A model generated the notes under the pieces. That model did no database searches and was not told the origin of the DNA. It was given only the letters and a program-made list of their open reading frames with translations. Positions 2,817-34,928 of a DNA stretch of 49,539 nucleotides are shown piece by piece (position 1 is the stretch's first letter; each line of letters starts with the position of its first letter). Source of the stretch: a virus; the IMG/VR virus record IMGVR_UViG_3300037264_004360, positions 1 to 49,539 of that record; one strand, written 5' to 3'. The translations under genes and the position numbers were made by a program.

Positions 2817-2869
2817 CGTGTCCCGCTCCGGCACCCTGGTGTGGATACGAGCGTGGGGTGTGAACGGTG

Positions 2870-2875
2870 TACAAT
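2870..2875 (+). promoter_or_regulatory. Possible -10 box in the gap before the cargo cluster
   Basis: TACAAT matches five of six bases of the sigma-70 -10 box and lies in the 84-base gap between 2816 and 2901, one of the few gaps in the left half. No good -35 hexamer is found 16-18 bases upstream, so this is weak. If real, transcripts would start near 2882, just before the Shine-Dalgarno of the first cargo gene. Confidence 0.22.
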
Positions 2876-2900
2876 GCGGACATTTACGAGGAGACAATTG

Positions 2901-3836
2901 ATGATAGTGCGTAAAGCGAGGCGGCAGAGGAAGAGTGGGGAAGAGCTGGTGTCCGGTGGGAAGTCCGTCCACTTCCCATTCGGCTCATATAGCTCCGGGC
3001 ACGACATCATGCGCAATCGAGCGACGGGAAAGCACCGCCTACGAGTGATGAACGGTCCACTGGAGATTTTCTCCGGTCCGGAACACGACAGCGCCAGCGA
3101 CGCGGAACGGTACGGCATCGAAGCGATGCGGACGCAGAATCCCGGCCTGTACGCGAACATGGGATTCCAGAAGTCGTCTGCGCCGCGTGGCACGGGGGCG
3201 CCGCGACACACGCACGGCGCGAAGAAGTCGCGCGCTGCATCTGGACGCCTGGCGATCTTGCGCCGGTACGGGTACCGCTCGCTCGGCATGGACGAGTACC
3301 GGCATCCGTCAGGGGCGCGCGTGGCGTTCGATGAGGGCGACGCCTGGCGGCATGGGTTGCCGCCGTCTCGAAAAGAGACGCAGACTCGCGAGCGCCGGGC
3401 GGATGAGTACCACGAACTTGAGACCGGCGACACGTTAGCCGAGCTCGAGCGGTATCTCGCAAAGTATCACAAGAGCGTCGAGGGGCTGGGTGACCCGCTA
3501 CTCAAGGCGCGTGTCCGTGACAGGTTCCAAGGCGTGCCGCACCTATCGCTCCCGCGGGAGCACGGAGAGCTGTCGCGGCGCGGCTGGGTGTTCCGCGGAG
3601 CTTCGCAGGATATCAGTGCGCACCGCGCGGGTGCGCCGCCGCGCCGGACGCCGCGTTCGAGGTCCTATCACTACGCGCATCCGGAGCACGGGCGTCTCAA
3701 TCTCCGGTACTACAGGGAACGGTATGCGTCGTCCTGGGAGCACACGGGCGGCGTCGCGTACGCAACGTCGAGCTCGACGGGCAAGCGCCTGTCGGCATAC
3801 CTCGCCGAGCTGCACGGGCAGAGAGGGACGCGATGA
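2901..3836 (+). CDS. Modular cargo-type protein with two GY-WxH modules and GDPLL motif
   Basis: 311 residues. ATG 2901 is chosen over earlier in-frame starts because ACGAGGAGA lies 7-15 bases upstream. Two copies of a recurring module are visible. Copy 1 (about 3240-3480): helix, YGYR, EYRHPSG, a W-R-H strand, then a helix ending YLAKYHKSV. Copy 2 (about 3556-3836): helix, RRGWVF, YHYAHPEHG, SWEHTGG, then LSAYLAELHG. Between them lies GLGDPLLKARV, a peptide shared by five proteins here. Several Lys-Ser pairs (FQKS, YHKS) sit at module borders. No enzyme motif. Most likely a virion-packaged structural or cargo protein; function unknown. Confidence 0.7.
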   Translation: MIVRKARRQRKSGEELVSGGKSVHFPFGSYSSGHDIMRNRATGKHRLRVMNGPLEIFSGPEHDSASDAERYGIEAMRTQNPGLYANMGFQKSSAPRGTGAPRHTHGAKKSRAASGRLAILRRYGYRSLGMDEYRHPSGARVAFDEGDAWRHGLPPSRKETQTRERRADEYHELETGDTLAELERYLAKYHKSVEGLGDPLLKARVRDRFQGVPHLSLPREHGELSRRGWVFRGASQDISAHRAGAPPRRTPRSRSYHYAHPEHGRLNLRYYRERYASSWEHTGGVAYATSSSTGKRLSAYLAELHGQRGTR

Positions 3837-5128
3837 CACCGGCGGCGGCGAAGAAGAAAGGCATGACCCAGGGTGCCGTGAGCATTGTCAATGGGAAGAT
3901 CACGTATCGTGGCACGAAGGTGGGTGAGGTGTTCCACGAGCTCGAGAACGGATACCACCCTGTGGTTCGCCTGCGCATGGGTGCAAGGCCAGATCGCGGG
4001 GCACCTTACGACCACCACTGGGAGCTGGACCATCCCGACCTCCTGGGGAGTATCTTTCACCGCGTGCGCGCGCATCTCGGGTTGCCACAGCGTGGAGATG
4101 GTGGACACGCCAAGTGCAGTCTGTGTCACGGACGAAAGCCCGCTGGTGTCGGCAAGTCGTATGGTGGCGTCGTACGGCGCCGCCGGAATGCCGCGCATGC
4201 GCCGCGCCGTGCCGCGGACAGTGGTGATCCGCGTGTCAGTCACGATGCCAGGGAGCTGGCGTTTCCGGACGTCGATGTGGCAGAGCTGTACGGCGCGTCG
4301 AGTCCGCGCTCCGGCTCACGCCCGCACCGCGGGCGGTATCGCAACCTTGGGACCAGGCGCCGTGCGCTACTTCGGAGCGTGGAGAAGTTGCCACGGCACA
4401 CGCATGCGGTGATAGTGGGCGGTGGGAACGTCTACGAGCGTTCCTTCCGCCTGGGCATTCGACGCCGCCGGCCTGGTGGTGCGGCCGGTGTGCCCGAGCA
4501 CCCACCGGACGCGCCCGTGCACGCCTCCATGCACGCACAGCTCCTCGCCGCCGGGATGCAGATGGTCGGTGGGAACGCCTGGTCGAGCGACTATCGGCAT
4601 CCGGCGCGTCCCGATGCCATGACGTCGGTGTCGGCGAAGGGTGACGTCACGCACTGGCGCAGGACGACGGTGCGTGGGCAGTGGGGGCGTGTGAGCAAGG
4701 GGCAAGCTGGTGGAGTGAGTGCAGCGAATCACCGGACGCTCCTCCGCGCCGGATTTGTTCACGCGGGCTCTGGCCCATCGGGGCCCATATACACGCGTGG
4801 GGCGCACAGCATTCACACGGGGTATCAGGAGGAGCGTGCTGGACTGGGGAACCCCGACTGGCGGCACACGTCTGACTACTCTGTCGTACGTGCCGACACT
4901 GTACGGCGTGGGTCGGGTGCACGATCGCTCGCGCGTTACGTCCGTGGACTGCGGAGTTACGAGGCCTCGCGTGCCGTGTTTGCCGGAGACCCGCTTTTCA
5001 AGGCGAAGTTGAAGAAAGCGAAGCGATTGGGCGTCGCGGTTCCACAGGCGCGCGTGTCGCTCACGCCGGCGCGGCACGCGCGGATGCGACGGCGGTTTGA
5101 AGACTTTCCCAGAGACAGGAGGGGGTGA
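3833..5128 (+). CDS. Modular cargo-type protein, Arg-rich, with GY-WxH-like modules
   Basis: 431 residues, ATGA overlap with the gene before. The protein is very basic, consistent with riding on packaged DNA. An N-terminal region contains a CSLC pair (about 4111-4122). Two segments resemble the repeated module: about 4528-4700 (LLAAGM, DYRHP, VTHWRR) and about 4720-4960 (TLLRAGFVHAG, IYTRG, PDWRHTSDY, then SLARYVRGL). The C-terminal part carries AGDPLFKAKL, a variant of the shared GDPLL peptide. No catalytic motif recognised. The middle part (about 4200-4500) is Arg/Ser/Gly-rich and could be disordered. Confidence 0.65.
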   Translation: MTPAAAKKKGMTQGAVSIVNGKITYRGTKVGEVFHELENGYHPVVRLRMGARPDRGAPYDHHWELDHPDLLGSIFHRVRAHLGLPQRGDGGHAKCSLCHGRKPAGVGKSYGGVVRRRRNAAHAPRRAADSGDPRVSHDARELAFPDVDVAELYGASSPRSGSRPHRGRYRNLGTRRRALLRSVEKLPRHTHAVIVGGGNVYERSFRLGIRRRRPGGAAGVPEHPPDAPVHASMHAQLLAAGMQMVGGNAWSSDYRHPARPDAMTSVSAKGDVTHWRRTTVRGQWGRVSKGQAGGVSAANHRTLLRAGFVHAGSGPSGPIYTRGAHSIHTGYQEERAGLGNPDWRHTSDYSVVRADTVRRGSGARSLARYVRGLRSYEASRAVFAGDPLFKAKLKKAKRLGVAVPQARVSLTPARHARMRRRFEDFPRDRRG

Positions 5129-5991
5129 TGTCTGTGACGACGTACGGCGATCCGTTGCTCAAGGCGCGTCTCGGTGCAGGCGACGCCTATAGCTGTCCGC
5201 AGTGCGGGGGGAAGGCGGTCGCCGACTCCCTCGGGTGGCGCGACTGCACGAACCGTCGCTGTGGGTGGAAGGAGACACAGCCGAGAGACTTGCGTGAGTT
5301 GCCGCGGCGGAAGGTGTCCAAGGCGATGGTTAGGCGACGTCGTCCCGGCGCCGCCTATGACATAGTGCGGCACCTGGAGCGGATCGGCTTCCGGCGTGAT
5401 GCGTACGAACGACAGCCGGGGGCCGCCGTTTACTGGTTGCGGCACGACAGGCTCCAGGGGACGGCAGTCTTGGCGCACCTGCGGAAGCTCGCCCCGAGCA
5501 CGAGTGCATCCTCGCTCTTCGACTCGCCGGCGCTTTCCATTCGCGGGCGCAGTCCGGGCGGTACGTTCTCGCTCATCCACCACCCGGCAGGGTCGGCCGT
5601 CCTGCGTCTCCACCGGCGCGGCGACGCGGGTGCGCAGGATCGCGCCGGGCGCGACGTCGAGAAGTCGCGCCGCGATCCCGAGCTTGACGCGACGCGACAG
5701 CGAGCGGATAGGAGTCATTTTCTCGATCCGTCGGTCACGAAGGCGTGGCCGTCGAAGGTCGGTGGGGCGTCGCTGCCAAAGCCGGGTGGCGTCCCGGCCG
5801 TGACGTCGGGTGCCACGATGCCATTCGGCGCCAAGAAGAAAAAGATCAAGGGGCTCGGGACGCCGGCGCGCCCGGCACGCCCGCCGGCGCCGCGTGCCGC
5901 ATCGGCGCCGCGCAGCCCGACGGCGTCGAGCGCGAAGGTCGGCGGTGGTGGGGCCGCGGGGTCGTCGGTGACACTCAAGGCGCGGGCGTGA
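5128..5991 (+). CDS. Cargo-type protein with N-terminal GDPLL peptide and zinc ribbon
   Basis: 287 residues. ATG 5128 is preferred to GTG 5125 because AGGAGG ends about five bases before it. Right after the start comes YGDPLLKARL, so here the shared peptide is N-terminal. A zinc ribbon follows, with CPQCGGK and, about 20 residues later, CTNRRCGW (four Cys). A degenerate GY-WxH module spans about 5356-5490 (HLERIGFR, VYWLRHD, VLAHLRKL). RDVEKS occurs mid-protein, and the last third is low-complexity Pro/Ala/Gly/Ser with a Lys cluster (GAKKKKIKG). Function unknown; nucleic-acid contact is plausible from the zinc ribbon and charge. Confidence 0.65.
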   Translation: MSVTTYGDPLLKARLGAGDAYSCPQCGGKAVADSLGWRDCTNRRCGWKETQPRDLRELPRRKVSKAMVRRRRPGAAYDIVRHLERIGFRRDAYERQPGAAVYWLRHDRLQGTAVLAHLRKLAPSTSASSLFDSPALSIRGRSPGGTFSLIHHPAGSAVLRLHRRGDAGAQDRAGRDVEKSRRDPELDATRQRADRSHFLDPSVTKAWPSKVGGASLPKPGGVPAVTSGATMPFGAKKKKIKGLGTPARPARPPAPRAASAPRSPTASSAKVGGGGAAGSSVTLKARA

Positions 5992-7631
5992 GCGACCAGA
6001 CGCGCGGCGACTACGCCCTGGCCTGGGACGCGGCGCGCCGCGCCTGGGTGATCCGCGCCACGGTGGGCGGGGCGTTGTCGTTTGTCACGGAAGATCACGC
6101 CACTGCCGAGCGGATGTTTGCCCTGCTGGCCCCGTTTGAGAAGAGTGGGAAGACGGCGGCCGACGCGCACCCAGCCTACCGGAAGCGCGTGGGCCTGTTC
6201 CGGCGCCTCCTTCTGCGGACGCGCGGCGCGGCGGCGAAGGCCAAGGTCGCCGAGGGCGAGGCGCGGCGGCACGAGCTCACGGTGCACCGGGCGAAGCTCC
6301 GGATCGAGCTGGCCAAGGTCAGGCAGGCGGAACTGATGACCGGAGGGTCGACGCGGATGCGCAAGGGGCGGCGTGTCAAGGTGCGGCAACGCGTGCTCGG
6401 GCGGCGCAAGTCGCGCCTGGTCTTGCTGGCGCAGCGCGGCGAACGCGCGCAGCGGCGGGACGAGGGCGGGAGCGACAGTCGCCTGATCGAGCGTTTCACG
6501 GAGCGCCCGGACGCCCGTGCGGCGCGGGTGGCGCGCCTGCGGCCAGATCAGCACGTGGCCGCCGCGCTGCAGAAGCTGTGGGCGCTCCGGACCAAGGCCG
6601 CCGAGCGCGGCGAGGCGCTGACGGGCAAGTCGATGGCGAAGAGCCATGCTGGGCGCGAGGCGCTCTCGGCGGCCCGTGCGGCGGGCTACGAGGGGCGCGG
6701 CCCGGCGCTCGACCTGACCGGGCTCGACCAGGGAGCCACGCTCTGGCACCGGGCGGGGTCGCGCGTCCACCTGCGGCCCTCGGGGCGCTGGGCGCATCGC
6801 GGGGCTGACGGCCAGCGGACGGCAACGGGGGCTGGCGGGGCGTCGCTGGCGGCGCACCTGGCGCGGCTGCACGGGGGCGGTGCCGTGACCAAGGCTGCTG
6901 CGTCTGGCGCTCTGCCACTCGTGGAGCGTCTTCGCGATGAGGTGGCGAGCGCGCTCGGCGTGCGCGCGGCGCATGTTGGTATTGGGCAGACGCGCTCCGG
7001 TAGCCGTGGCGAGACGGACATAGCTGGGCGGATCACCCTAGATCACGAGGGGCGGTTCGAGGATCTTGACGACATTCGCGGCGTGCTCGCACACGAGCTT
7101 GCGCAAGTGCATCACGGGCGGATGGGCCGTCGCCTTGGTCCTTACGCCGATGAAGTGTCTGGACGTCTCGCGACGCGGTTCGGTGGGACTGCCTCGCGCT
7201 GGCGAGAAGCCGTTGCCGTCACGCGCGCGCCGCGTTCCATCGGGCGGCTCTTGCGCGAGCACGCCGCGACCGTGACCAAGTCCGTCGCCCTCGACTTCGA
7301 CGGCGTGCTGGCGACCTACGACGGCTGGAAGGGAGAGGACCACTTCGGCCTGCCGATGGCGGGCAGCCGGGCACTGGTCGAGGCGCTGCGGGACAAGGGG
7401 CAGGAGGTCGTCGTCTTCACGGCGCGTCCGCCGGCGAAGGTGACGCGCTGGCTCACCGAGCACCACTTCCCCGAGGGGCTCCAGGTCACGAACGTCAAGG
7501 ACAGCGCGATGACGGTGTTCCTCGACGACCGAGTAGTGCACTTCTACCCACAGATGCTCCGCACGCCGGAAGGGGTCGGTCGCTTGGCCGGCGCCCTCGC
7601 CGGGTTCCGGGCGCACTGGCAGGAGGACTGA
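5988..7631 (+). CDS. Multidomain cargo protein: GY-WxH module, degenerate zincin, HAD phosphatase
   Basis: 547 residues from GTG 5988 (GTGA overlap). Domains in order: an N-terminal domain ending at FEKSGKT (near residue 51); a basic, probably helical region; a GY-WxH module (about residues 223-304) ending GGAVTKA; an ImmA/IrrE-like zincin region (about 310-420) whose motif reads HELAQVHH, with Gln373 where the second zinc His is expected; then VTKS followed at once by a HAD phosphatase. The HAD domain has all four motifs: DFDGVL (Asp436, Asp438), FTAR (Thr478), NVK (Lys504) and LDDR (Asp513, Asp514). It looks active; the substrate is unknown. The VTKS linker at the domain border is a candidate proteolytic site. 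Probably packaged and processed (inference). Confidence 0.75.
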   Translation: MSDQTRGDYALAWDAARRAWVIRATVGGALSFVTEDHATAERMFALLAPFEKSGKTAADAHPAYRKRVGLFRRLLLRTRGAAAKAKVAEGEARRHELTVHRAKLRIELAKVRQAELMTGGSTRMRKGRRVKVRQRVLGRRKSRLVLLAQRGERAQRRDEGGSDSRLIERFTERPDARAARVARLRPDQHVAAALQKLWALRTKAAERGEALTGKSMAKSHAGREALSAARAAGYEGRGPALDLTGLDQGATLWHRAGSRVHLRPSGRWAHRGADGQRTATGAGGASLAAHLARLHGGGAVTKAAASGALPLVERLRDEVASALGVRAAHVGIGQTRSGSRGETDIAGRITLDHEGRFEDLDDIRGVLAHELAQVHHGRMGRRLGPYADEVSGRLATRFGGTASRWREAVAVTRAPRSIGRLLREHAATVTKSVALDFDGVLATYDGWKGEDHFGLPMAGSRALVEALRDKGQEVVVFTARPPAKVTRWLTEHHFPEGLQVTNVKDSAMTVFLDDRVVHFYPQMLRTPEGVGRLAGALAGFRAHWQED

Positions 7632-7634
7632 ACA

Positions 7635-8213
7635 ATGGCGAAGTCGAGTGGACGTAGAAAATCTCCTGGTGACAGGCTCAGGCCATCACGTGACGAACAG
7701 CAGACGCTCTACGACGAGTGGAAGACGCAGGGTGCGAGGGGTATAGACGAGACGTCAGCGCCGCGCACGTACGTCACGCGCGCGGAGCGGGAGCAGGATG
7801 CCTACGACAATCAAAAGTATCGCGCGGCGATGGGTGATGGTGCCATATTCACATCGCGCACGCAGACGCCGATGACACTGGCGGAGGCAAATCGGCGGGC
7901 CGGCAAGTCTGGGCACACCATCAAGCACCTGGGCGGTGGGCAGTACAGCGTGGGACCGATCGGCTTTCGCGATGTCAGGTCGACGGACTTCTACGAGACG
8001 GACGATCTGCACGCGGCGGTGCGGTTCGGCGTGAAGCAGGATGCCAGGCACAAGAAGTTCGAGGCGCGGCACGAGCTGCGCACGTCAGGACGGTTGCAAT
8101 ACCTGGCACCGCGGCGCGGCGTGCGCAAGGCGTTCGGCGACCCGCTCTTGTCCGTGCGGCTGCAGAAGGCGGGTGGTGGCGTGCGGGCGAAGTCGCGCGG
8201 GGCGGCCGACTAG
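7635..8213 (+). CDS. Small cargo-type protein with C-terminal GDPLL motif
   Basis: 192 residues, starting three bases after the previous stop. Basic N-terminus (KSSGRRKS), then a polar helical region (TRAEREQDAYDNQKYRAAMGDG). Near the C-terminus VRKAFGDPLLSVRLQKAG combines a Lys-Ala pair with the shared GDPLL peptide, followed by RAKSRG. No catalytic motif. The arrangement suggests a short passenger with a targeting or processing tail; function unknown. Confidence 0.6.
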   Translation: MAKSSGRRKSPGDRLRPSRDEQQTLYDEWKTQGARGIDETSAPRTYVTRAEREQDAYDNQKYRAAMGDGAIFTSRTQTPMTLAEANRRAGKSGHTIKHLGGGQYSVGPIGFRDVRSTDFYETDDLHAAVRFGVKQDARHKKFEARHELRTSGRLQYLAPRRGVRKAFGDPLLSVRLQKAGGGVRAKSRGAAD

Positions 8214-8248
8214 GTGCCCAGCGTGGGTGCCCGAGACCTTCTGGGAGT

Positions 8249-8271
8249 GCCTGCCTGAAGTTCAGGCTGGC
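8249..8271. promoter_or_regulatory. Inverted repeat in a 163-base gap
   Basis: The gap 8214-8376 holds no convincing gene. Within it, GCCTGAA-G-TTCAGGC (8253-8267) is a perfect palindrome around one central base, and the arms extend to 8249 and 8271 with a single mismatch. The centre is too short for a normal RNA loop, so a dimeric protein operator is the better guess. No promoter boxes are clear nearby. Confidence 0.3.
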
Positions 8272-8376
8272 AAACGAGGCCACTTTGAGTCCCAGGGTGG
8301 GGAAAACCTACATGCACGGGAAGGGCGTGATGCAGTGTATCGGGTGTGTGTGGTGTCGACGTATGGAGGCGTCGGT

Positions 8377-8652
8377 ATGACGCACGTACAGATTGTGACA
8401 TTCATCGACTCCCTGCCAGCGCACTTGCGTGCGGCGCTCCACCCGCAGGGGCGCTGGGCGCTGGTGGTGCCGGTGAGCCGGTCGGCGCCCTATGTCACTC
8501 TCGCGTCGACGTCGGGCGTGGTGACGACCGTGGTGGTGGCGCGTTCGCCCGCCCGCGCGGCGGTGGAAGAGGTGTTCGGGCAGGCGACGGACGAGTGGCG
8601 CGCGCTGCTGCACGAGGCGAACGTGGTGGATATGTGGCAGGTGGCGGCGTGA
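8377..8652 (+). CDS. Hypothetical protein
   Basis: 91 residues. ATG 8377 has GGAGGC about 8 bases upstream. The sequence opens MTHVQIVTFIDSLPAHLRAAL and ends with a helix-rich part (AAVEEVFGQATDEWRALLHEA). Soluble, no motif recognised. It overlaps the next large gene by four bases (GTGA), so the two are probably translated together. Confidence 0.5.
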   Translation: MTHVQIVTFIDSLPAHLRAALHPQGRWALVVPVSRSAPYVTLASTSGVVTTVVVARSPARAAVEEVFGQATDEWRALLHEANVVDMWQVAA

Positions 8653-10424
8653 CGATCGATGCGGCGCTGGCGGGCGCGGGGGTGGAGAAGAGCCTGAGCG
8701 GCGAGACCTTCGGCTGGCTGCTTCCAGACGGCAGCACGATTGCGGGAGATCGAGACTGGCGCGCCCACGTTATGCAATTCAAGACACACGAGTCGCTGGC
8801 GAGAGAACATGGCGTGCATGATGCCTACAAGCGAGGGTGGACACGGTGGTCTCTCGCGCACGGGTCGGATACGCTGTTGGTGGAAGCGGCCTTCCCGAAG
8901 GATATGGCGGCGAGAAAACGCATCGCGCAATGGATCGGCACCATGAAGCCTACCGGTGGCGTCATTGGCGATAGCGGCACCTTTGAGCGGTACGGGGATG
9001 CCGTGCGCCACTTGCTGTCGGATGATACGGTTCCGTCTCCAGCGATGCACAAGTCCATCCGCGGCATCGTCCTCAAGGCCCGCACGCTTCCGATCACGGT
9101 GTCCGAGGAAGCCCTGCCTGCCATCGAGGCGGCGCAGAAGGCGGGCTACCGCCTCCAGCCGCACAGGACAGACGGCCACGGCGAGGTGCATTGCCTCGTG
9201 GCGGCTGACACGGGGGACGAACTCCACGTACACGGCTCGACGGGCTCCTGGGAGCACCACCGCGGCGGGCGGCCAGTCGGCGGCGGGGCGCACGGGGCGG
9301 GGCTGGATACCTACCTCCGGCGGCTTGGGAAGTGCACGGTGCTCAAGGCGCGACGGTACGTCGAACCGAAGGTGCGCGGGTTTGCGCGCTTCCCACCGGA
9401 ACGGCTCGGTGAGATTGAGACCGCGCTGGCGCAGTTGCCTGAGCACCTGCGTGCGGGCGTCACCATTCAGCCCATGTCCGCGCGACAGCAGGCGGGGCAT
9501 GGCGATAGGGCGTACTACCAGCCGCGCGCGCGCAGGGGGAAGGGGCGCGTGTTGCTGGCGCGAAACCCAGGGCCGCGCGCGACGGGCAATGCCATCGTGC
9601 GGATGCAGACCCTGCTGCATGAGTTGGGACACCACACTGAGCATCGGAGTAATGCGACGGGTATAGATCCGCCATACCCGGCGCGCCGCGCCGCCTTCAC
9701 GTTCGTGTTTGGGGAAGACACGAGGCGACGCCCGGGCTCAGGAGGCGCGCATCGTGGAAAGGTGGTCACGCCTGGTATGTATCGGTATGAACACGCGCAC
9801 GACGAAGGTAAAGAAACGAACGTGGATTTGAGTCATGAGCGCTGGGCTGAGGCGGCGCGTCTCAAGGTGCAGTCCCCGGCGCGCTACGCTACACTGCCCG
9901 AGGACGTGCGCGGGTTTATCGATCAGGCATGGCGGTCGCCGCGGTTCCCGAAGAAGGGGCTCCCGTTGCACGGGAAGAGCGGTTACGCAGAGGTGGGGGA
10001 GCTTCTCGCCAAGGCCGCGTCCGCCGAGGCGGCAGGTGTCGATGAGCAGGCACAGGTGGGCCTGCATGACCTCGTGGCCGAAGCCGAGGCGCACGGGTAC
10101 CGACCGAAGCACGCCGGCTCGCCGCTGTCGACGGCGTTCGGCGCCCACCTGTACGCGGGCGACCCCGACCACACGCTGATGCTGACCGCCGGCGGCGCAT
10201 GGCGGCACTGGGCGGGCGACGTGGTGACGGGGAGCGGGGTCGGCGCGGTGCCGCTCCGGCACTTCCTCGACCTGGAAGCGGGCGCGGTCGAGAAGAGCAG
10301 CCGGCGCGAGTGGCTCACGGTCAAGGATGGGAAAGTCGAGCAGGAACATGGCACGCGCGCGGCAGCGATATTGTGGGCGCAGGGGACGCACGATACCGCG
10401 GCCGAACGGGCGCGGAAGCCATGA
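8649..10424 (+). CDS. Multidomain cargo protein with HExxH metallopeptidase and two GY-WxH modules
   Basis: 591 residues from GTG 8649. Order: a short leader ending VEKS (residues 12-15); domain A (about 16-130); MHKS and VLKA (133-144); GY-WxH module (about 154-234; AAQKAGYR, SWEHHRGG, TYLRRLGK) ending TVLKA; a zinc metallopeptidase with intact HELGHH (His324, Glu325, His328), a likely third ligand lying downstream; a second module (about 471-551; EAHGYRP, AWRHWAGD, RHFLDLEAG) ending VEKS; and a short tail. Every domain border carries a hydrophobic-x-Lys-Ser/Ala tetrapeptide. The peptidase could act on host proteins after injection or on virion proteins; no substrate can be read from the sequence. 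Confidence 0.75.
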   Translation: MTIDAALAGAGVEKSLSGETFGWLLPDGSTIAGDRDWRAHVMQFKTHESLAREHGVHDAYKRGWTRWSLAHGSDTLLVEAAFPKDMAARKRIAQWIGTMKPTGGVIGDSGTFERYGDAVRHLLSDDTVPSPAMHKSIRGIVLKARTLPITVSEEALPAIEAAQKAGYRLQPHRTDGHGEVHCLVAADTGDELHVHGSTGSWEHHRGGRPVGGGAHGAGLDTYLRRLGKCTVLKARRYVEPKVRGFARFPPERLGEIETALAQLPEHLRAGVTIQPMSARQQAGHGDRAYYQPRARRGKGRVLLARNPGPRATGNAIVRMQTLLHELGHHTEHRSNATGIDPPYPARRAAFTFVFGEDTRRRPGSGGAHRGKVVTPGMYRYEHAHDEGKETNVDLSHERWAEAARLKVQSPARYATLPEDVRGFIDQAWRSPRFPKKGLPLHGKSGYAEVGELLAKAASAEAAGVDEQAQVGLHDLVAEAEAHGYRPKHAGSPLSTAFGAHLYAGDPDHTLMLTAGGAWRHWAGDVVTGSGVGAVPLRHFLDLEAGAVEKSSRREWLTVKDGKVEQEHGTRAAAILWAQGTHDTAAERARKP

Positions 10425-22072: not shown

Positions 22073-22420
22073 ATGACGTCCGTGTTTCAGTGCGAGGCGG
22101 CCGGGCGGCGGTTCGAGGTGGACGGCGACCGGATCAAGCTCGCCCTTCACGCGCTCCCGAGCGGCCCGGTGCGGTTTCAGCAGGTGTACAGCTGGGGCTT
22201 CGCGTACCTGACGAACAGCGAGCGCGCCCTGGTGCGTCGGCTGACCGATGACCTCGCCGGCAAGGCGGGGCCGGGCTTCATCAAGGGCGACTGCGGGATG
22301 GCGCTCGCCGAGTGGATGACGGGGCTGCGCAAGGAGAAGCTGCGCGGGGCGGCGGCGCAGGTGGCGCAGTCGTACGACGCGCTCGTCAAGGAGGCGATCC
22401 ATGCCGTTGTGGTTGCATAA
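22073..22420 (+). CDS. Tail/virion-associated small protein of unknown function
   Basis: 115 residues; GGAGGGG precedes ATG 22073. It opens with two beta strands (VFQCEAAGRRFEVDGDRIKLAL), then helices (TNSERALVRRLTDDLAGKAG, EWMTGLRKEKLRGAA). The gene overlaps the start of the large multi-enzyme gene by 20 bases, so they are translationally linked. No family recognised. Confidence 0.5.
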   Translation: MTSVFQCEAAGRRFEVDGDRIKLALHALPSGPVRFQQVYSWGFAYLTNSERALVRRLTDDLAGKAGPGFIKGDCGMALAEWMTGLRKEKLRGAAAQVAQSYDALVKEAIHAVVVA

Positions 22421-25115
22421 GGCGCTGCAAACGACGGTCAGGTTACTTCCGAGCGCGAAGCTCGCTAGCCCGCGTGATCGCTGGCAGCGCTCGGTGTATA
22501 ACTTGGAGCTCCCGGGGCGCGGAACAGTTGGACACATCTACACACGGCACCTGAAGCGTGGGCCGCGTTTGAAGACCGTGCACATCGATTTCGCGGAGTG
22601 GGAGAGTGGGCACGAAGGGCACAGTGCTATGCGTTCCGCGCTCCGCGGCGTGCTGACTGACATGCGGGAGCGAGGGATTGCCGTGCGGCGATTTACAGGT
22701 TTGCGCACGACCGGCCAGCGGCGCAGGCGCGAAGGCATTGATCATACTACCATACACACAGTCGGCAAGAGCCGCGCGCTCGCGGGCCGCCGCGTGTTCC
22801 AGGGCTTTCCCATCTCCATCGAGTCCCCGGCGGGCAGCACCCGCCACTGGAAGGACCCGCTGACAGGGGAGGAAGGCGATACGCGTGTCCGGTACGATTA
22901 CGGCTACATCCAGCGCACCGAGGGAGCCGACGGGGAGCACGTCGACTGTTACGTCGGCCCCGACGAGGCCGCCACCCACGTGCATATCGTCCGGCAGGTC
23001 AACCTCCAGTCGGGCGCGTACGACGAGGACAAGGTCATGTTGGGGTTCCCCGACGAGGCGGCGGCGCGCCGGGCGTACCTCGCCCACTACGACAAGCCGG
23101 ATTTCCTCGGGCTGGTCATCGCCATGCCAGTGGAGGAGTTTCGCCGGAAGGTCCACGCGACAGCGGATGTACCAGGCATGGTGCGCGTGGGCGTGACGGT
23201 GACGCAGAAGTCGGAGGACGGTTCCGTGCATCGCCTGTATCATGTGGCATTTTCAGACCGCGTCGGTGCGATAGTCAGGCGTGGCATTCGCGCCACACGG
23301 CGTGGCATTTGGCATAACGCGTTCGGTGGGCATGTACCAACGCAGGTGCGCGGGGCCGTCTATGCGTTCACAGAACGGCATCACGCTGTGCTCTGGGCGG
23401 CGAAACAGGCGTTTGACTTTGGTGGACGCCCTACGTCAGTGATTGAATTTGATGGTGCGCGCGACGCGTGGACGCCTGACACAAATCAGCTTATGCGGAG
23501 GAGTGCTGTCATGTCAGGTCACCACGTTGACGCGAGTCAGATACGCGGACACTGGCCGGTTGAACAGGAGCACATCAGAGCCGCCGTGCAGCAGGACCGC
23601 AAAGACTGGACACAGAAGTCCTGCCTCGTGCTCAAGGCTGGTGGCGCCGCGACGCGTGGATCGTACTACTCGCGCGTCCGCGGGGACAAGATGTTCAATA
23701 CGATCGTCACGGGGCGGCGGCGCTCCAGGGCCAGCACCGCGCTGTACCAACGCACGCGGCGGGCGCACCACCGGTGGCAGACCGCCGCCGAAGAGGCGTA
23801 TGTCTCGCTGACGAACAATCAGAAGGCAGTCTTACAGCGCCCACGCTCCGTGTCCACACTGCTCGATCGCCTGGGTGGGTCGTTCGGCGCAGGGCGCACG
23901 AAAGCGGTCAACCTGTGCGACGTCTCAGTCAGTGGGACAAACATTTTCTGCGAACAGAACAAAGGCTTTGCGCGCAAGGATATGCCGCAGCTCAAGGATC
24001 GTCCACGACCAGGGTCGCGTGCCGACGCGCTGCCAAAGGATCACAACGGCGAAGTCGACATCTCCGATCACTTCATCAAGCACCTGACAGACCATGGTGT
24101 GGCGGTGTCACATGAGCTGAGCGAGGCGCGGCACCTCAAGGCCACGCAGAACGAGCTCAATGGCAAGGTAGTGGGCGCAATCATGCACGCCATCGAGACG
24201 AAGACGATGCCGGCGGGGTCTGTGTTCGTGTCCAGCGACGATTACATCTTGGATGGGCACCACCGCTGGGCGGCCAAGGTCGGCGCCGATTTTCGACGCG
24301 GTGACAAGGTGAGCGAGCCGCTGCCCATTGTCCGCATCGGGATGCCGATTCTCAAGTTGATGCACGCCGCGCATGAATTTTCTTCCGGCTGGGGCATGCA
24401 GTCGCAATCGATGGAGACGCGCAAGGATTGGAAACCGCCTGTCCCGTCGGTTGCGCCGGCCACACCGACGGCACCGGCGCTGAAGTCGGCGGCGATGGGG
24501 ACTGGACCTCGGAGAAGGTTCGCCAAGCAAACGTCGCGCGTGTATGTACCGCGCCGTCTTGTCGATGCATCATCTGCGCTCGAGGATGTCATGCCGTGGG
24601 ATCGCCCGAACAAGGCATTGGCTGGTGACAGCGACAGATTTGATCCCAAGACGGCGCTGCGCATCGGTGTCCCAACACGTGTCACGCCGACGCCGGACGA
24701 AGCCTCTGGCGTCGATGGGAAGCTCCACTTTGGATGCTGTTACGACACGGCAGGTCGCTATGTCATGAATCGCCCGGCACACACAGCGCTCACGCTCGTA
24801 CACGGGACGCTAAAAATCGGGCCCGTGACGATGGGGCACGGCTGGGTGGAGATGACGCGCCCCGATGGCACCGAGATCGTGCACGATGGCGTGCAGAGCG
24901 ACTTTTACGACAAGAAGAGCTATTACGAGAAGACGGGCGCGGTGAGCGAACACAGGTACACACCGATGGAGGCGATGAAGATGATGTACAAGTCGAAAAA
25001 CTTTGGACCGTGGGAACACACCGCCGGTATCACGAAGGGTCCTGTCAGGTTCCTCGACGGGACGCCGTCACGAAATATACGTCCGGCGCGGTCGCGCGTG
25101 CGGCGGACGTTATGA
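22401..25115 (+). CDS. Polyvalent multi-enzyme protein: InPase-like, ART-like, ParB-like and Cys/His domains
   Basis: 904 residues, the largest cargo-type protein; GGAGGC precedes ATG 22401. Domains: an N-terminal region of possible GNAT type (about 30-110, weak); an inorganic pyrophosphatase-like domain (about 130-252: GFPISIESPAGSTR, YDYGYI, GADGEHVDCYVGP, EDKVMLGF); TQKS (about 270); an ADP-ribosyltransferase-like domain (about 276-357: HRLYHVAFS, VYAFTERHHAVLWA); TQKS/VLKA (about 402-413); a ParB/sulfiredoxin-like domain (about 500-665: LKATQNELNGK, ILDGHHRWAAKVG); ALKS (about 693); and a C-terminal domain with Cys, His and Asp in papain/NlpC-like order (GCCYDTAGRYV, GHGWVEM, HDGVQSDFY). 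Such collections are known as phage polyvalent proteins, thought to enter the host with the DNA. Activities are inferred from motifs. Confidence 0.75.
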   Translation: MPLWLHKALQTTVRLLPSAKLASPRDRWQRSVYNLELPGRGTVGHIYTRHLKRGPRLKTVHIDFAEWESGHEGHSAMRSALRGVLTDMRERGIAVRRFTGLRTTGQRRRREGIDHTTIHTVGKSRALAGRRVFQGFPISIESPAGSTRHWKDPLTGEEGDTRVRYDYGYIQRTEGADGEHVDCYVGPDEAATHVHIVRQVNLQSGAYDEDKVMLGFPDEAAARRAYLAHYDKPDFLGLVIAMPVEEFRRKVHATADVPGMVRVGVTVTQKSEDGSVHRLYHVAFSDRVGAIVRRGIRATRRGIWHNAFGGHVPTQVRGAVYAFTERHHAVLWAAKQAFDFGGRPTSVIEFDGARDAWTPDTNQLMRRSAVMSGHHVDASQIRGHWPVEQEHIRAAVQQDRKDWTQKSCLVLKAGGAATRGSYYSRVRGDKMFNTIVTGRRRSRASTALYQRTRRAHHRWQTAAEEAYVSLTNNQKAVLQRPRSVSTLLDRLGGSFGAGRTKAVNLCDVSVSGTNIFCEQNKGFARKDMPQLKDRPRPGSRADALPKDHNGEVDISDHFIKHLTDHGVAVSHELSEARHLKATQNELNGKVVGAIMHAIETKTMPAGSVFVSSDDYILDGHHRWAAKVGADFRRGDKVSEPLPIVRIGMPILKLMHAAHEFSSGWGMQSQSMETRKDWKPPVPSVAPATPTAPALKSAAMGTGPRRRFAKQTSRVYVPRRLVDASSALEDVMPWDRPNKALAGDSDRFDPKTALRIGVPTRVTPTPDEASGVDGKLHFGCCYDTAGRYVMNRPAHTALTLVHGTLKIGPVTMGHGWVEMTRPDGTEIVHDGVQSDFYDKKSYYEKTGAVSEHRYTPMEAMKMMYKSKNFGPWEHTAGITKGPVRFLDGTPSRNIRPARSRVRRTL

Positions 25116-25690
25116 ACGCGCCGATGCACACCAGCATGTCGCGGCAGGTCGGGTTGAGCGATACCGAGCTGGTGCACGTCTCCAGACATCAGCGGCGCTC
25201 GTCTCGGCGCGTGTTCAAATCTCGCGCGCTGGTGTTGAAGCCGCGCCCGCCAGCCGATGACATTACCATTGAAGATGACGATGTCCATGGCGCGGGTGGG
25301 ATGGCTCGTGGCATTCGCGTGATGGCGCCGTCTACGCACCTGCTCGCGACAGTGCCCGTTGGCGCTCGGTCCGTGCACGCGCACTACCTTGGTTCCCCAC
25401 TTGTCGACGATGCACGAGGTGTGAATCAAGCGCCAATCCCAATTGGGATGTCACGCCCCGTGCACCCTACAGAGGTCTTGCGTGTAATGCGTCGCTTTGT
25501 CAGGCACATCGCAGAGCAGTATCCGCAGGCGCGTAACATCGTCGTCATGGCGCATCACAAGTCAACCTTGCATCTCATGCGTCGACTTGGTGCGCGACGG
25601 AGGATACGCCTGACCGGCGAAGCCGAGTATCACATTCCCATGCGAGCGGTTATTGGAAAAGGCGTATTGTGGAGCGTGGAACTCGCCTGA
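25112..25690 (+). CDS. Cargo companion protein with possible GNAT-like C-terminus
   Basis: 192 residues, ATGA overlap with the multi-enzyme gene. RVFKSRALVLKP in the first third again holds the Lys-Ser and Lys pairs. The C-terminal part (about residues 115-192: EVLRVMRRFVRHIAEQYPQARNI, then THLMRRLGARRR-like helix and a final strand) is reminiscent of an acetyltransferase half, but no acetyl-CoA pyrophosphate loop (Q/RxxGxG/A) is clear. Function uncertain; the neighbour and motif suggest it too is a packaged protein. Confidence 0.5.
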   Translation: MNAPMHTSMSRQVGLSDTELVHVSRHQRRSSRRVFKSRALVLKPRPPADDITIEDDDVHGAGGMARGIRVMAPSTHLLATVPVGARSVHAHYLGSPLVDDARGVNQAPIPIGMSRPVHPTEVLRVMRRFVRHIAEQYPQARNIVVMAHHKSTLHLMRRLGARRRIRLTGEAEYHIPMRAVIGKGVLWSVELA

Positions 25691-25986
25691 TGCGCTGCGC
25701 GACCTGTCAGTATAAACTGCTCCGGCACCGCGAGGATCACACTGCGCTCCTGACGAAGCGCCTGATCCTGTACAAATCGGGGCGGCTCGAGGTGATCTGC
25801 CCGCGGTGCAATGGCGTCATCGCCGTCGACGGACCGCTCGTCAAAGCGATGGGGCGGCGTCAGACGGTGCTCAAAGTGACTACAGTGCCGCAAAGTGTGA
25901 TACAAAAGACGTGGGAGAGTAGAATAGAACGAAAGGAGGGCGGGAGCAATGCCGGGACCGACGACGCTCAGCGTTTCACTCGATAG
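25690..25986 (+). CDS. Com-like zinc-ribbon protein
   Basis: 98 residues, TGATG overlap. MRCATCQYKLL and, after about 35 residues, VICPRCNGVI form two CxxC knuckles in the arrangement of Mu Com, a small zinc protein that activates translation of the mom mRNA. No mom-like gene is seen here. The last 12 codons overlap the next gene, whose promoter and ribosome binding site lie inside this one. The role could be translational control or simply structural zinc binding. Confidence 0.5.
   Translation: MRCATCQYKLLRHREDHTALLTKRLILYKSGRLEVICPRCNGVIAVDGPLVKAMGRRQTVLKVTTVPQSVIQKTWESRIERKEGGSNAGTDDAQRFTR
25897..25925 (+). promoter_or_regulatory. Possible sigma-70-type promoter inside the Com-like gene
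   Basis: GTGATA (25897-25902) and TAGAAT (25920-25925) match four and five of six consensus bases with a 17-base spacer, in an AT-richer patch. A start near 25932 would leave a very short leader that begins at the AAAGGAGG ribosome binding site of the gene at 25949. Confidence 0.33.
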
Positions 25987-31744: not shown

Positions 31745-32515
31745 ATGCTACACGTCATCCAGCGCAGTCAGGGCGCCGAGGGGGTCGAGTACGACTTCGC
31801 CTTCGACGCGCACTTCGCCAAGGCCGAGGACGCCACCGACGACCGCCGGCTGGTCTGCGGGATGGCGTCGGCGGACCTCCGCGACTCGCAGGGTGAGACC
31901 GTCATTCAGAACGGCATCGACTTCAAGTATCTCCTGGAGCGCGGCGTCATCAACTGGGACCACGGGAAAGACCCTGGGTCGATCATCGGCGAACCCATCG
32001 AGGCTTCTGTGGTGCCCATCGACAGCCATCCGGTCATGTCGAAGAGCGGGCTCCACGGGCACCTGGGGTTCTGGGTCAAGGCGTTTCTGTACAAGGGCAA
32101 GCGGATGGCGGACGAAGCCTGGGAATGGCTCCAAGTCTCCGCGGCGCAGGGGACGCGCAAGCCTGGGTGGTCGATCCAGGGGCGCGTCGTCGAGCGCAAC
32201 GGCCCGCGGATCGTCAAGTCCGAGATCCTCCACCTCGCGCTCACCCACCAGCCGATCCTGACCGTGTCGTTCGCGGAAATCGTGAAGAGCATGACGACTG
32301 GGAGCGCCGGACCTGCGCTGCTCGAGGCGCTCAACGGCCGCGTCACGTCAGTCCTGTGGGGCGAGCCGTGCCGGAAGGGCTGCTTCGACGCGACGGCGCG
32401 ATTCCGCAAGGGGCGAAGCGGGGCGCTGGAACACCTGACGGGGTGCAAGGGCTACACCCTCAACGAGAGCGCCGAGTTTCTCAAGGCGCTCATCACCAGC
32501 CGCTTGGCTATCTAA
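31745..32515 (+). CDS. Prohead maturation serine protease, XkdF-like
   Basis: 256 residues. XkdF-type herpes-fold protease features: GMASADLRDSQGETV (strand and turn), INWDHGKDPGSIIG with His73, GWSIQG with Ser143, and ILHLALTHQPI with His163/His168 as the possible third member. After residue 180 a separate C-terminal part has Cys/His ligands (EPCRKGCF, HLTGCKGY), perhaps a small zinc domain that binds scaffold. Lys-Ser occurs at 100/101, 158/159 and 181/182; the last divides the protease from the C-terminal part and could be a self-cleavage site. It sits before scaffold and capsid genes, as usual for such proteases. Confidence 0.85.
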   Translation: MLHVIQRSQGAEGVEYDFAFDAHFAKAEDATDDRRLVCGMASADLRDSQGETVIQNGIDFKYLLERGVINWDHGKDPGSIIGEPIEASVVPIDSHPVMSKSGLHGHLGFWVKAFLYKGKRMADEAWEWLQVSAAQGTRKPGWSIQGRVVERNGPRIVKSEILHLALTHQPILTVSFAEIVKSMTTGSAGPALLEALNGRVTSVLWGEPCRKGCFDATARFRKGRSGALEHLTGCKGYTLNESAEFLKALITSRLAI

Positions 32516-32536: not shown

Positions 32537-33403
32537 ATGGCACCTGTGGCAATGAAGGATCTCAAGCGGTCGGCAGACGAGCTGGATGCGTTGCTGCACC
32601 CAGACGACGAACGCAAGCAGGGCGACGAGGGCGCCAAGGCGACGCTGCGCGAGCGGCTCCTGAAGTCGGCGTCCGATCTCTCGTCCGGGCTCAAGGCGAT
32701 GTTCAGGGCCGACGAGCTCAAGAAGGCAGAAGACGAGGAGATGGTGGCGGACGAGGGCGAGGAGGGTGACGAGGAGGAGGAGGACGAGGACGGCGACGAG
32801 GGCGAGCAGACGGAAGAGGGTGGGACGATCGGCCGCACGACCGTCAAGGACCCGGTGAAGTCCGCCGCGAATATGGCGATCGAGGAAGACATGGAGCAGC
32901 GTGGCGGCGATGGCCTGTCGCAGAAGTCGGCGGCAGCGCGCGGGGCGCTCTACGACGACCTGCTGAACGACGAGGACTTCGGCGATGCGGTCGAAGCCTC
33001 GGCAGCCCTGGAGCACCTCGCCGGCACGCTCGGCAAGGCGTTCGGGGATCTTCTCGCGGAGGTCCAGACGCTCCGGCGCGCGCAGGGCGAGATGGCGAAG
33101 TCCGTCGCGCTGGTCTGCGAGGCGCAGGCGTCGCTCATCAAGTCGGCCGGGATGCACCCGGTGCGGTCGGTGGCGCCGGGGATCATGGGGCAGTTCGGTG
33201 ACGTCGTCAGCGAGGCGTCCAACGGCGCGCTGTCGAAGACCGACATCATGGTGCGGCTGGAGAAGGCGATGCACGACGGCAAGGTTTCGGCCAACGACAT
33301 GGCGAAGTTCCAGACGCGGCCCCTGGAGGTCCTGGGACGGCTCCCGGCCGACGTGCTGAAGGCGTATGACATCCCGGCTACCTGGGGCAAGGACAAGAAG
33401 TAA
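32537..33403 (+). CDS. Scaffold protein with repeated Lys-Ser sites
   Basis: 288 residues; GAGGGAGG upstream of ATG 32537. Acidic centre (residues 65-95 almost all Glu/Asp/Gly), helical coiled coil around 150-195, and basic C-terminus, as in capsid scaffolds. The motif hydrophobic-x-Lys-Ser or close variants occurs at 43/44, 108/109, 130/131, 188/189 and 202/203, and Lys-Ala at 53/54. Cutting at those points would turn it into small peptides that can leave the head. Sits between protease and major capsid protein. Confidence 0.8.
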   Translation: MAPVAMKDLKRSADELDALLHPDDERKQGDEGAKATLRERLLKSASDLSSGLKAMFRADELKKAEDEEMVADEGEEGDEEEEDEDGDEGEQTEEGGTIGRTTVKDPVKSAANMAIEEDMEQRGGDGLSQKSAAARGALYDDLLNDEDFGDAVEASAALEHLAGTLGKAFGDLLAEVQTLRRAQGEMAKSVALVCEAQASLIKSAGMHPVRSVAPGIMGQFGDVVSEASNGALSKTDIMVRLEKAMHDGKVSANDMAKFQTRPLEVLGRLPADVLKAYDIPATWGKDKK

Positions 33404-33476: not shown

Positions 33477-34928
33477 ATGGGACCGACGACGGAACTGACG
33501 GGTAGCTTCATGGCGCAGGCACCCCCGCGGCTCATCGGGAAGTCGTTCGAGACGCTGGGGCGTGAAGTGTACGGTCCCTCGTTCTCCGGTGACCGGGTGA
33601 TCGAGGACATGCAGAAGGCGCTCGCCACGGGCGACATCGCCGGCTTCGGTGACGCCACGGCGCTGCGGCTGGAGAACCTGGATTCGATGATGACCTCGGT
33701 ACTGTTCACCGAGGCGCACCTCAAGCTATTCAATTCGATCCCGAGGACGCCGAGCGCCCAGCCTCTGTTCCAGTGGATCAGGCGCGACCGCTACGGCAAC
33801 ACGCGCGGGGCCGTGGGATTCCGCGAGGGCGGCGCCCCGACGGGTGGGACGTCGAAGTGGACCCGGAAGAGCATCATGAACAAGTACATGGGCGTCCGGC
33901 GCGGCTACACGCACCAGATGCTCACGACCGGCATGATGGGCGGCGCGTTCGTCGACCCCGTGACGGAGGAGACGCGGAACGGCACGCTGGAGTTGCTGGA
34001 AAAGATCGAGCGCGGCGTGCTGTGGGGCAACCACCTCATCGAGGACGCCAACGGCAACGAGGTCCACTACGACGGCATCTACAAGCAGTTGACCGACGCC
34101 GCCGTGGGCTCCGTCATCAACCTCAACGGTCGGCCGCTCGACTTCGAGGACCTGGAGAACGCGGCTGAGCGGCTGGTGACCACCGGCCGACTGCTGAATT
34201 TCTCCCGCGTGCGGACCTTCTGGAAGCCGCGCGTCCTGACCGACCTCGCGAAGCTGAAGGTGCAGTCGGAGCGCCGCATCCTCGGGCAGGACAACGTGCC
34301 AGGGTACCGGCCCGGCGTGCCGCTCCTCGGCTACCGGACGCAGCACGGCGAGTTCCCCTTCGACGACTCCATCCTGATGGAAGCGGTCGACGGCAGCGCG
34401 CCGCTCGGCACCGGTGACACCGGCGCGCCCGTGGCCCCGGCCACCTGCGTCGGCACGCCCTCGACCCCCGGGATCGCGACCAACATGGTGGCGGGCACCT
34501 ACTACTACTTCGCCGCGTCGATCAACGACGCGGGCGAGTCGGCGCCTGTGGCCTCCAGCGGCGTCGTAGTCGCTGCTAACGGCGATCAGGTCTCCGTCGC
34601 CATCGCGGATGCCGCCACCGCGACCGGCTACCGGCTGTACCGCGGCATCACCACCGTCGCCGCCGACGCGGGCTGGATCGCCACCGTGCCGGAAGCGTCG
34701 GGTGCGACGTACGTGGACACCAACCAGATCATCCCGGGGGCGGGCGTGGGCCTGATTCTCAACCTCGCGGAAGAGGACATCGTCATCCCGCAGATGGCGC
34801 CGCTCACGAAGTTCCCGCTGGCCATCACGAGCACGACAATCGAATTCCTGCTCATCCTGTATCACGTGTTGGCGATCAAGGCCGCCGAGCGGCAGATAAT
34901 GTTCGTAAATATCGGCACGCGCGCGTAG
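33477..34928 (+). CDS. Major capsid protein, HK97 fold, with Ig/FnIII-like insert
   Basis: 483 residues. ATG 33477 with AAGGAGG about 14 bases upstream. The core resembles SPO1-type myovirus capsid proteins: an N-terminal stretch ALRLENLDSMMTSVLFTEAH, RYGNTRGAVGFREGGAP, YMGVRRGYTHQ, and a late VIPQMAPLTKFPLA. Residues about 324-420 form an inserted Ig/FnIII-like domain (TYYYFAASINDAGESAP, GYRLYRG, TYVDTNQ), probably exposed on the capsid surface. Ile20-Gly21-Lys22-Ser23 fits the Lys-Ser motif and would remove a 22-residue N-terminal piece on maturation (inference). Confidence 0.85.
   Translation: MGPTTELTGSFMAQAPPRLIGKSFETLGREVYGPSFSGDRVIEDMQKALATGDIAGFGDATALRLENLDSMMTSVLFTEAHLKLFNSIPRTPSAQPLFQWIRRDRYGNTRGAVGFREGGAPTGGTSKWTRKSIMNKYMGVRRGYTHQMLTTGMMGGAFVDPVTEETRNGTLELLEKIERGVLWGNHLIEDANGNEVHYDGIYKQLTDAAVGSVINLNGRPLDFEDLENAAERLVTTGRLLNFSRVRTFWKPRVLTDLAKLKVQSERRILGQDNVPGYRPGVPLLGYRTQHGEFPFDDSILMEAVDGSAPLGTGDTGAPVAPATCVGTPSTPGIATNMVAGTYYYFAASINDAGESAPVASSGVVVAANGDQVSVAIADAATATGYRLYRGITTVAADAGWIATVPEASGATYVDTNQIIPGAGVGLILNLAEEDIVIPQMAPLTKFPLAITSTTIEFLLILYHVLAIKAAERQIMFVNIGTRA

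What the first reader, a model, noticed from the sequence alone, without database searches (positions are those of the whole stretch)
22401..25115. Polyvalent protein joining pyrophosphatase-like, ADP-ribosyltransferase-like, ParB-like and Cys/His domains
Four recognisable domain types follow each other, divided by Lys-Ser/Ala linkers. Such mixtures are known from phage polyvalent proteins thought to act in the host at entry. The combination here with a separate cargo cluster 10 kb away, and lack of fusion to MuF, is uncommon. A pyrophosphatase-like unit could act on nucleotides or on alarmone-like signals, an ART unit could modify host proteins or nucleic acid; both would fit counter-defence.
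Basis: partly seen in the sequence, partly recalled or inferred. Interest (0 to 1): 0.75.

Follow-up and report, generated by a model that had tools for sequence, protein, structure and literature searches.

The report
Phage four-enzyme cargo with cut sites
This virus gene encodes one long protein that strings together four different enzyme-like units, and the short linkers between them carry what looks like the cutting signal of the virus's own head-assembly protease, suggesting that a package of separate enzymes is made inside the virus head and carried into the host.

Summary
The ORF is real: 22401-25115 (+), 904 aa. The four-domain reading holds. (1) InPase, PF18823, aa 129-251, E=3.5e-36. 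(2) ADP-ribosyltransferase (ART) fold, aa 276-386: no Pfam match, but an AlphaFold2 model whose best PDB matches are essentially all ART superfamily. (3) A ParB/SerK-like DGHHR domain, aa 461-675, of a phage family (phrog_2859) elsewhere fused to capsid protease, capsid, portal and anti-defence domains; its fold was not modelled. (4) A C-terminal Cys-His-Asp domain, aa 777-873, of an unnamed phage family with a papain-like core. It is a polyvalent protein (Iyer et al. 2017) in a combination found nowhere else in the collections searched. The 'Lys-Ser linkers' are the notable part. In nine phages with SPO1-type prohead proteases, [LIVM]-x-K-S occurs 89 times against 6.7 expected in scaffold and protease genes; the same test on T4 recovers its known x-x-E rule. 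In the window the motif marks head and cargo genes, not tail genes, and Lys-Ser falls in all four linkers of this protein (p about 0.002). Best reading: head-packaged cargo, probably cut by the prohead protease into single enzymes. Packaging, cutting and targets are inferred; counter-defence is plausible but unproven.

The parts
22401..25115 (+). 904-aa multidomain protein (P0001)
   Evidence: ribosome site 22388-22394
22401..22769 (+). N-terminal region aa 1-123, very basic (pI 11.7), no assignment
   Evidence: no Pfam, PHROG or phage tblastn match; pI
22785..23153 (+). InPase (phage-type inorganic pyrophosphatase) domain, aa 129-251
   Evidence: PF18823 E=3.5e-36; alignment of 15 members; PDB 9b41 portal C-terminus E=2.6e-15
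23226..23558 (+). ADP-ribosyltransferase-fold domain, aa 276-386; invariant Y280, H281, W304, V320, Y321, W332, D360
   Evidence: alignment A6, AF2 model, Foldseek PDB, PDB profile search with KptA first at E 0.001 and DarT1 at 0.26
23781..24425 (+). ParB/SerK-like domain with SSDDYILDGHHRWAA at aa 611-625, aa 461-675
   Evidence: phrog_2859, relatives L014-L079, alignment A5; fold not modelled
24729..25019 (+). C-terminal papain-like-core domain, aa 777-873; C780, H813, E817, D829, GPW motif
   Evidence: AF2 pLDDT 90-95 over the core; Foldseek
22767..22772 (+). Predicted prohead-protease site V-G-K|S, aa 123/124 (N-term / InPase linker)
   Evidence: fits strict motif [LIVM]-x-K-S
23208..23213 (+). 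Possible site T-Q-K|S, aa 270/271 (InPase / ART linker)
   Evidence: KS in linker; P3 is Thr, relaxed motif only
23616..23639 (+). Possible sites T-Q-K|S (aa 406/407) and V-L-K|A (aa 412/413) (ART / ParB linker)
   Evidence: VLKA fits the strict motif
24483..24488 (+). Possible site A-L-K|S, aa 695/696 (ParB / Cys-His linker)
   Evidence: relaxed motif
25112..25690 (+). Adjacent 192-aa gene; with the next gene it carries the same motif (4 vs 0.6 expected); likely co-cargo
25669..25986 (+). Adjacent 105-aa gene with weak zinc-ribbon-like match, scored for the motif together with 25112-25690
31745..32515 (+). Prohead (head maturation) protease of the SPO1 gp3.2 type; presumed cutter
   Evidence: phrog_1028 E=1.4e-24; SPO1 gp3.2 E=2e-20
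32537..33403 (+). Scaffold-like acidic protein, 5 KS against 1.3 expected
   Evidence: position between protease and MCP as in SPO1 gp3.3
33510..34928 (+). Major capsid protein, with I-G-K|S at residue 11 of this start
   Evidence: phrog_752 E=1.6e-49
3..1805 (+). Portal protein (5' end cut by the contig); KS-rich Gly-rich C-terminal tail
   Evidence: phrog_2662 E=9e-12
2841..10424 (+). Second cargo cluster: [LIVM]-x-K-[SAG] 23 vs 5.3 expected; HELGHH zincin motif in 8346-10424

Best explanation
A head cargo (polyvalent) protein of an SPO1-type contractile-tailed phage. It is made late, enters the prohead, is cut at Lys-Ser/Ala linkers by the phage's prohead protease into single-enzyme pieces (predicted about 14, 16, 15, 32 and 23 kDa), and is delivered into the host with the DNA. 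There the InPase would hydrolyse pyrophosphate or a nucleotide, the ART would use NAD+ to modify a host macromolecule, the ParB/SerK-like unit would act as an NTP-dependent enzyme, and the papain-like unit would act as a peptidase, amidase or deamidase. Shown: the gene; InPase family, ART fold, papain-like core and ParB-like family membership; the motif statistics; that the contig encodes an SPO1-type prohead protease. Inferred: packaging, cutting, injection, every catalytic activity and every target.
For: Domains. The protease and capsid are most like those of SPO1-group phages. In nine such phages [LIVM]-x-K-S is 13-fold enriched in scaffold plus protease (89 vs 6.7); it is the top motif in eight of nine, and second to [LIVM]-x-K-A in PHB04. 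The same scan on T4 gives Glu at P1, its known specificity. Within the window the motif marks protease/scaffold and the cargo cluster but not the tail. KS lies in all four linkers of this protein (p=0.0018 given six sites; 0.00035 by shuffling). InPase domains of this family are fused to portals: Pa193 gp19, L153, BcepF1 (PMC5512222). Portal residues 529-765 of Pa193, which include its InPase, have no density (PMC11042391). In Bordetella phage PHB04 a solo InPase sits with RelA/SpoT and phosphatase genes between portal and capsid. ParB-like relatives are fused to capsid protease, capsid and portal. Precedent for a prohead protease cutting packaged head proteins: SPN3US gp245 (PMC10052503).
Against: No virion data exist. 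Enrichment in this protein alone is modest: strict motif 5 vs 2.0 (p=0.056); the relaxed class (7 vs 2.4, p=0.006) was widened after its sites had been seen. Only two of the linker sites (123, 412) fit the strict motif. Two KS sites lie inside the last domain. PHB04 cargo genes show no KS enrichment and Mecenats66 cargo does not either. The gene lies among fibre and glycosyltransferase genes rather than next to the portal. In scaffolds the motif might partly reflect helix periodicity.
Confidence: 0.55

Rival explanations
1. Packaged and injected whole; the linkers are only flexible, and any processing is done by the C-terminal papain-like domain itself, in the head or in the host, as proposed for the MPTase domain of phage P1 DdrB.
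For: C780/H813/D829 are the family's conserved residues on a papain-like core; autoprocessing of polyvalent proteins is the published idea (PMC5512222).
Against: Does not explain why KS is the single most enriched dipeptide in head and cargo genes but not in tail genes. Relatives of the Cys/His domain are often short stand-alone proteins (136-199 aa), which points to an effector rather than a processing role.
Confidence: 0.25
2. Not packaged: an enzyme made in the infected cell that acts on nucleotides and host proteins during late infection.
For: No direct evidence of packaging; motif enrichment in this protein is modest; neighbours include a glycosyltransferase and an HNH endonuclease.
Against: Fusions and neighbourhoods of the InPase and ParB-like families point to virion proteins.
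Confidence: 0.15
3. A tail or baseplate accessory protein, given the tail-fibre-like neighbour at 25949-27397.
For: phrog_772 match of the neighbour, E=1.7e-6.
Against: Tail and fibre genes of this window lack the motif (ratio 0.8-1.4); its four domains are enzyme families, not adhesins.
Confidence: 0.05

Closest known systems
Phage polyvalent proteins (Iyer et al. 2017, PMC5512222)
   Same: Several unrelated enzyme domains in one polypeptide, late-gene phage setting, phage-type InPase and ParB-superfamily domains.
   Different: This combination is not in the collections searched. It carries no HExxH MPTase; instead it ends in a papain-like domain (the words papain and transglutaminase do not occur in that paper's text), and its linkers carry a prohead-protease-like motif.
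InPase-tailed portal proteins (Pseudomonas phage Pa193 gp19, PDB 9b41; Burkholderia phage BcepF1)
   Same: Same InPase family (phmmer E=2.6e-15).
   Different: Here InPase is part of a separate multi-enzyme protein and not of the portal.
T4 and giant-phage head proteins cut by prohead proteases (T4 gp21; SPN3US gp245, PMC10052503)
   Same: Head-internal proteins with a short, repeated protease motif; the T4 rule is recovered by the same scan.
   Different: Predicted rule here is [LIVM]-x-K|S(A/G) rather than x-x-E, and the cuts would separate enzyme domains instead of removing one propeptide. [quoted passage not shown]
Tpt1/KptA, Arr and DarT branches of the ART superfamily
   Same: Fold and the Y-H / V-Y motif layout.
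   Different: Separate, Pfam-negative phage family with invariant W304, W332 and D360; activity unknown.

Membership tests
Polyvalent proteins | 2-15 functionally diverse domains in one polypeptide | tested here: met
   four domain families
Polyvalent proteins | phage late/structural gene context | tested here: met
   portal, protease, scaffold, capsid, sheath and tape measure on the same contig
Polyvalent proteins | packaged and injected at entry | not testable with these tools
   needs virion proteomics
Polyvalent proteins | MPTase (HExxH) domain, frequent but not obligatory | tested here: not met
   no HExxH in the translated sequence; one (HELGHH) is in cargo gene 8346-10424
Phage-type InPase (PF18823) | score above Pfam gathering threshold | tested here: met
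   124.5 bits against 26.8
Phage-type InPase (PF18823) | conserved acidic active-site residues | tested here: met
   E141, D177, D182, 208-DEDK-211 conserved across relatives; catalysis untested
ADP-ribosyltransferase superfamily | ART fold | tested here: met
   AF2 pTM 0.75; Foldseek best E 1.2e-4, probability 1.00
ADP-ribosyltransferase superfamily | match to a curated ART family by sequence | tested here: not met
   no Pfam ART hit for the window domain
ADP-ribosyltransferase superfamily | NAD+-dependent transfer | not testable with these tools
   needs assay
DdrB-like ParB / ParB-Srx-SerK superfamily | ParB/Srx fold with active-site arginine | tested here: inconclusive
   DGHHR motif and phrog_2859 membership; PDB profile hits to SerK/1vk1 only E 0.1-0.33; no model made
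Papain-like cysteine hydrolases | Cys on a helix, then His and Asp on the sheet | tested here: inconclusive
   conserved C780/H813/D829 and helix-sheet order; many papain-like hits but only E 0.03-1
MuF-fused effectors | MuF domain in the same polypeptide | tested here: not met
   no MuF; separate MuF-like gene at 12985-14196
Substrates of an SPO1-type prohead protease | [LIVM]-x-K-S/A/G sites above chance in the protein | tested here: inconclusive
   5 vs 2.0 expected, p=0.056; placement in linkers p=0.0018

The most novel reading that the evidence does not exclude
SPO1-type prohead proteases cut at [LIVM]-x-K|S(A/G), and some of these phages use this maturation protease to release a set of single enzymes from long precursor proteins inside the head: an injected effector polyprotein.
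Probability: 0.45. Interest if true: 0.78.

Novelty: new variant of a known kind. Interest (0 to 1): 0.62.

Why it matters
Polyvalent proteins pose an open question: how can domains with different targets in one chain act apart after entry? A testable answer is offered here, namely cutting by the capsid protease at sites that can be read from sequence. If right, the same motif would flag head-packaged cargo in many phages without proteomics, and it adds an ART family and a papain-like family that Pfam does not recognise. Ordinary trypsin mass spectrometry would hide such cuts, because trypsin also cleaves after Lys.

Tried and rejected
Single-domain tblastn of the ART, N- and C-terminal regions against phages: nothing. 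Pattern scans by 8-mers for the ART and C-terminal regions: nothing. Genome searches with the C-terminal domain: nothing usable. My first ART motif was wrong, since its gap ranges excluded the window itself; it was redone. A joint alignment of fragments from three domains was misaligned and not used for folding. A control against my own ART search: with the searched motif residues masked, the profile score falls to chance (E 0.05), so the ART claim rests on the fold and not on that score; independent support is that ParB-fetched proteins L056 and L067 carry ART and ParB domains in one ORF. Protein A matches of the ParB profile are chance helical matches. PHB04 and Mecenats66 cargo were tested for KS and showed no enrichment, so the cut-cargo idea is not general in this clade. 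The N-terminal 123 residues remain unassigned. One Pfam call failed for a frame error.

Full report
The gene. Window 22401-25115 (+) is one open frame of 904 codons with a good ribosome site. The window is a 49.5-kb linear IMG/VR fragment. It holds portal, MuF-like minor head protein, tail fibre, glycosyltransferase, HNH, prohead protease, scaffold-like, capsid, sheath and tape-measure genes: a contractile-tailed phage whose protease and capsid are most like those of SPO1-group phages.

Domains. InPase is secure: Pfam E=3.5e-36 and conserved acidic residues. The next unit has no Pfam match. A motif scan built from Y-H-V-A...I...G-I...V-Y found a small phage family in long proteins; AlphaFold2 with eight sequences gave pTM 0.75, and Foldseek returned Tpt1/KptA, TreX, Arr, DarT and other ARTs as essentially all of its best 50 PDB matches. 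A profile search of PDB sequences also puts KptA first (E 0.001), with DarT1 at 0.26. The third unit belongs to phrog_2859 and to a family of more than 60 viral relatives with S-x-DDYILDGHHRWAA. In other phages these relatives are fused to prohead protease and capsid, portal, Acb1, zeta-toxin-like and ART domains. It is named ParB/SerK-like from its motif; its fold was not modelled and PDB hits were below significance. The fourth unit belongs to a family with conserved C, H, E, D and a GPW ending. Its model is confident over the core and resembles papain-like cysteine hydrolases, at weak E-values, with one strong viral match (A0A516KY01, E 1.1e-5). One relative, L084, joins it to an ART-PolyVal-like domain (PF18760, 30.6 bits against a cut-off of 31.2); in L129 and L130 it lies in the same gene row as a ParB-like gene.

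Novelty of the combination. In 50,697 phage records no place covers 80% of the protein; the listed matches cover InPase only (746 records). IMG/VR gives InPase-only or ParB-only relatives.

Linkers. The dipeptide KS is the most enriched of all 400 in the head genes of this window, of Touem01 and of SPO1, and in the 2841-10424 cluster, but not in tail genes. In the protease and scaffold genes of nine SPO1-type phages the wider motif [LIVM]-x-K-S occurs 89 times against 6.7 expected; Ala and Gly follow at P1'. T4, run the same way, yields Glu at P1, the known gp21 rule. I therefore read [LIVM]-x-K|S(A/G) as the cleavage rule of this protease clade; HK97 gp5 is also cut between Lys and Ser (own knowledge, not tested here). 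In the window the strict motif is enriched 4.8-fold in protease/scaffold, 4.3-fold in the cluster 2841-10424, 6.4-fold in the two genes after ours, and 0.8-fold in the tail; in our protein it is 2.4-fold (p=0.056). Its six KS sites include one in each of the four linkers (p=0.0018 given six sites).

Mechanism. Best explanation: a packaged precursor cut into single enzymes at head maturation. The gene, the folds and the motif statistics are shown; packaging, cutting and function are inferred. The published idea for polyvalent proteins is autoprocessing by an MPTase domain (PMC5512222), which this protein lacks; the neighbouring cargo gene 8346-10424 has a HELGHH motif. Prohead proteases cutting packaged head proteins are known in SPN3US (PMC10052503).

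Limits. The contig is a metagenomic fragment; no relative with the same architecture was found; two cargo-bearing relatives, PHB04 and Mecenats66, lack the KS signal in cargo; the relaxed motif was defined after seeing this protein.

Noticed in passing
window 2841-10424: Cargo cluster after the portal: 23 [LIVM]-x-K-[SAG] against 5.3 expected; a GDPL[LF]-[KS]-[AV]-[RK] motif recurs in four of its genes (2841, 3833, 5125, 7635); HELGHH in 8346-10424 and a HAD-like DFDGV in 5988-7631.
   Followed up: partly
L130:815-6495: Row of genes sharing an N-terminal tag like MPxFLVPLHExNDCHNPxGxxxGGQFC in front of different bodies (RelA/SpoT-like by eye, ParB-like, Cys/His, P-loop kinase-like, topoisomerase-IB-like by eye): possible packaging tag.
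   Followed up: no
L056:5245-8232: The tag AHDVSDEPRDEGGKWT(G/D)GGG precedes both the ART and the ParB-like module in one ORF; similar tags occur in L168 and L153.
   Followed up: no
L153:1362-3548: Portal protein ending in an InPase domain whose DEDK motif is degenerate (YHQPKVFLGW), suggesting a dead or altered enzyme.
   Followed up: no
L173:13842-35595 (Bordetella phage PHB04): Between portal and capsid: RelA/SpoT-like synthetase, phosphatase, solo InPase, very long methylase and helicase proteins; a probable entry-effector set.
   Followed up: partly
L175:5285-6019 (SPO1 gp3.3): Twelve KS sites against 3.2 expected in the SPO1 scaffold; trypsin-based proteomics would not reveal cuts there.
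   Followed up: yes
L016:2956-6066: One ORF joins the ParB-like domain to a prohead protease and a major capsid protein.
   Followed up: no
window 22500-26000: G+C falls from about 0.68 to 0.59-0.63 over the gene and its two followers, suggesting later acquisition.
   Followed up: partly
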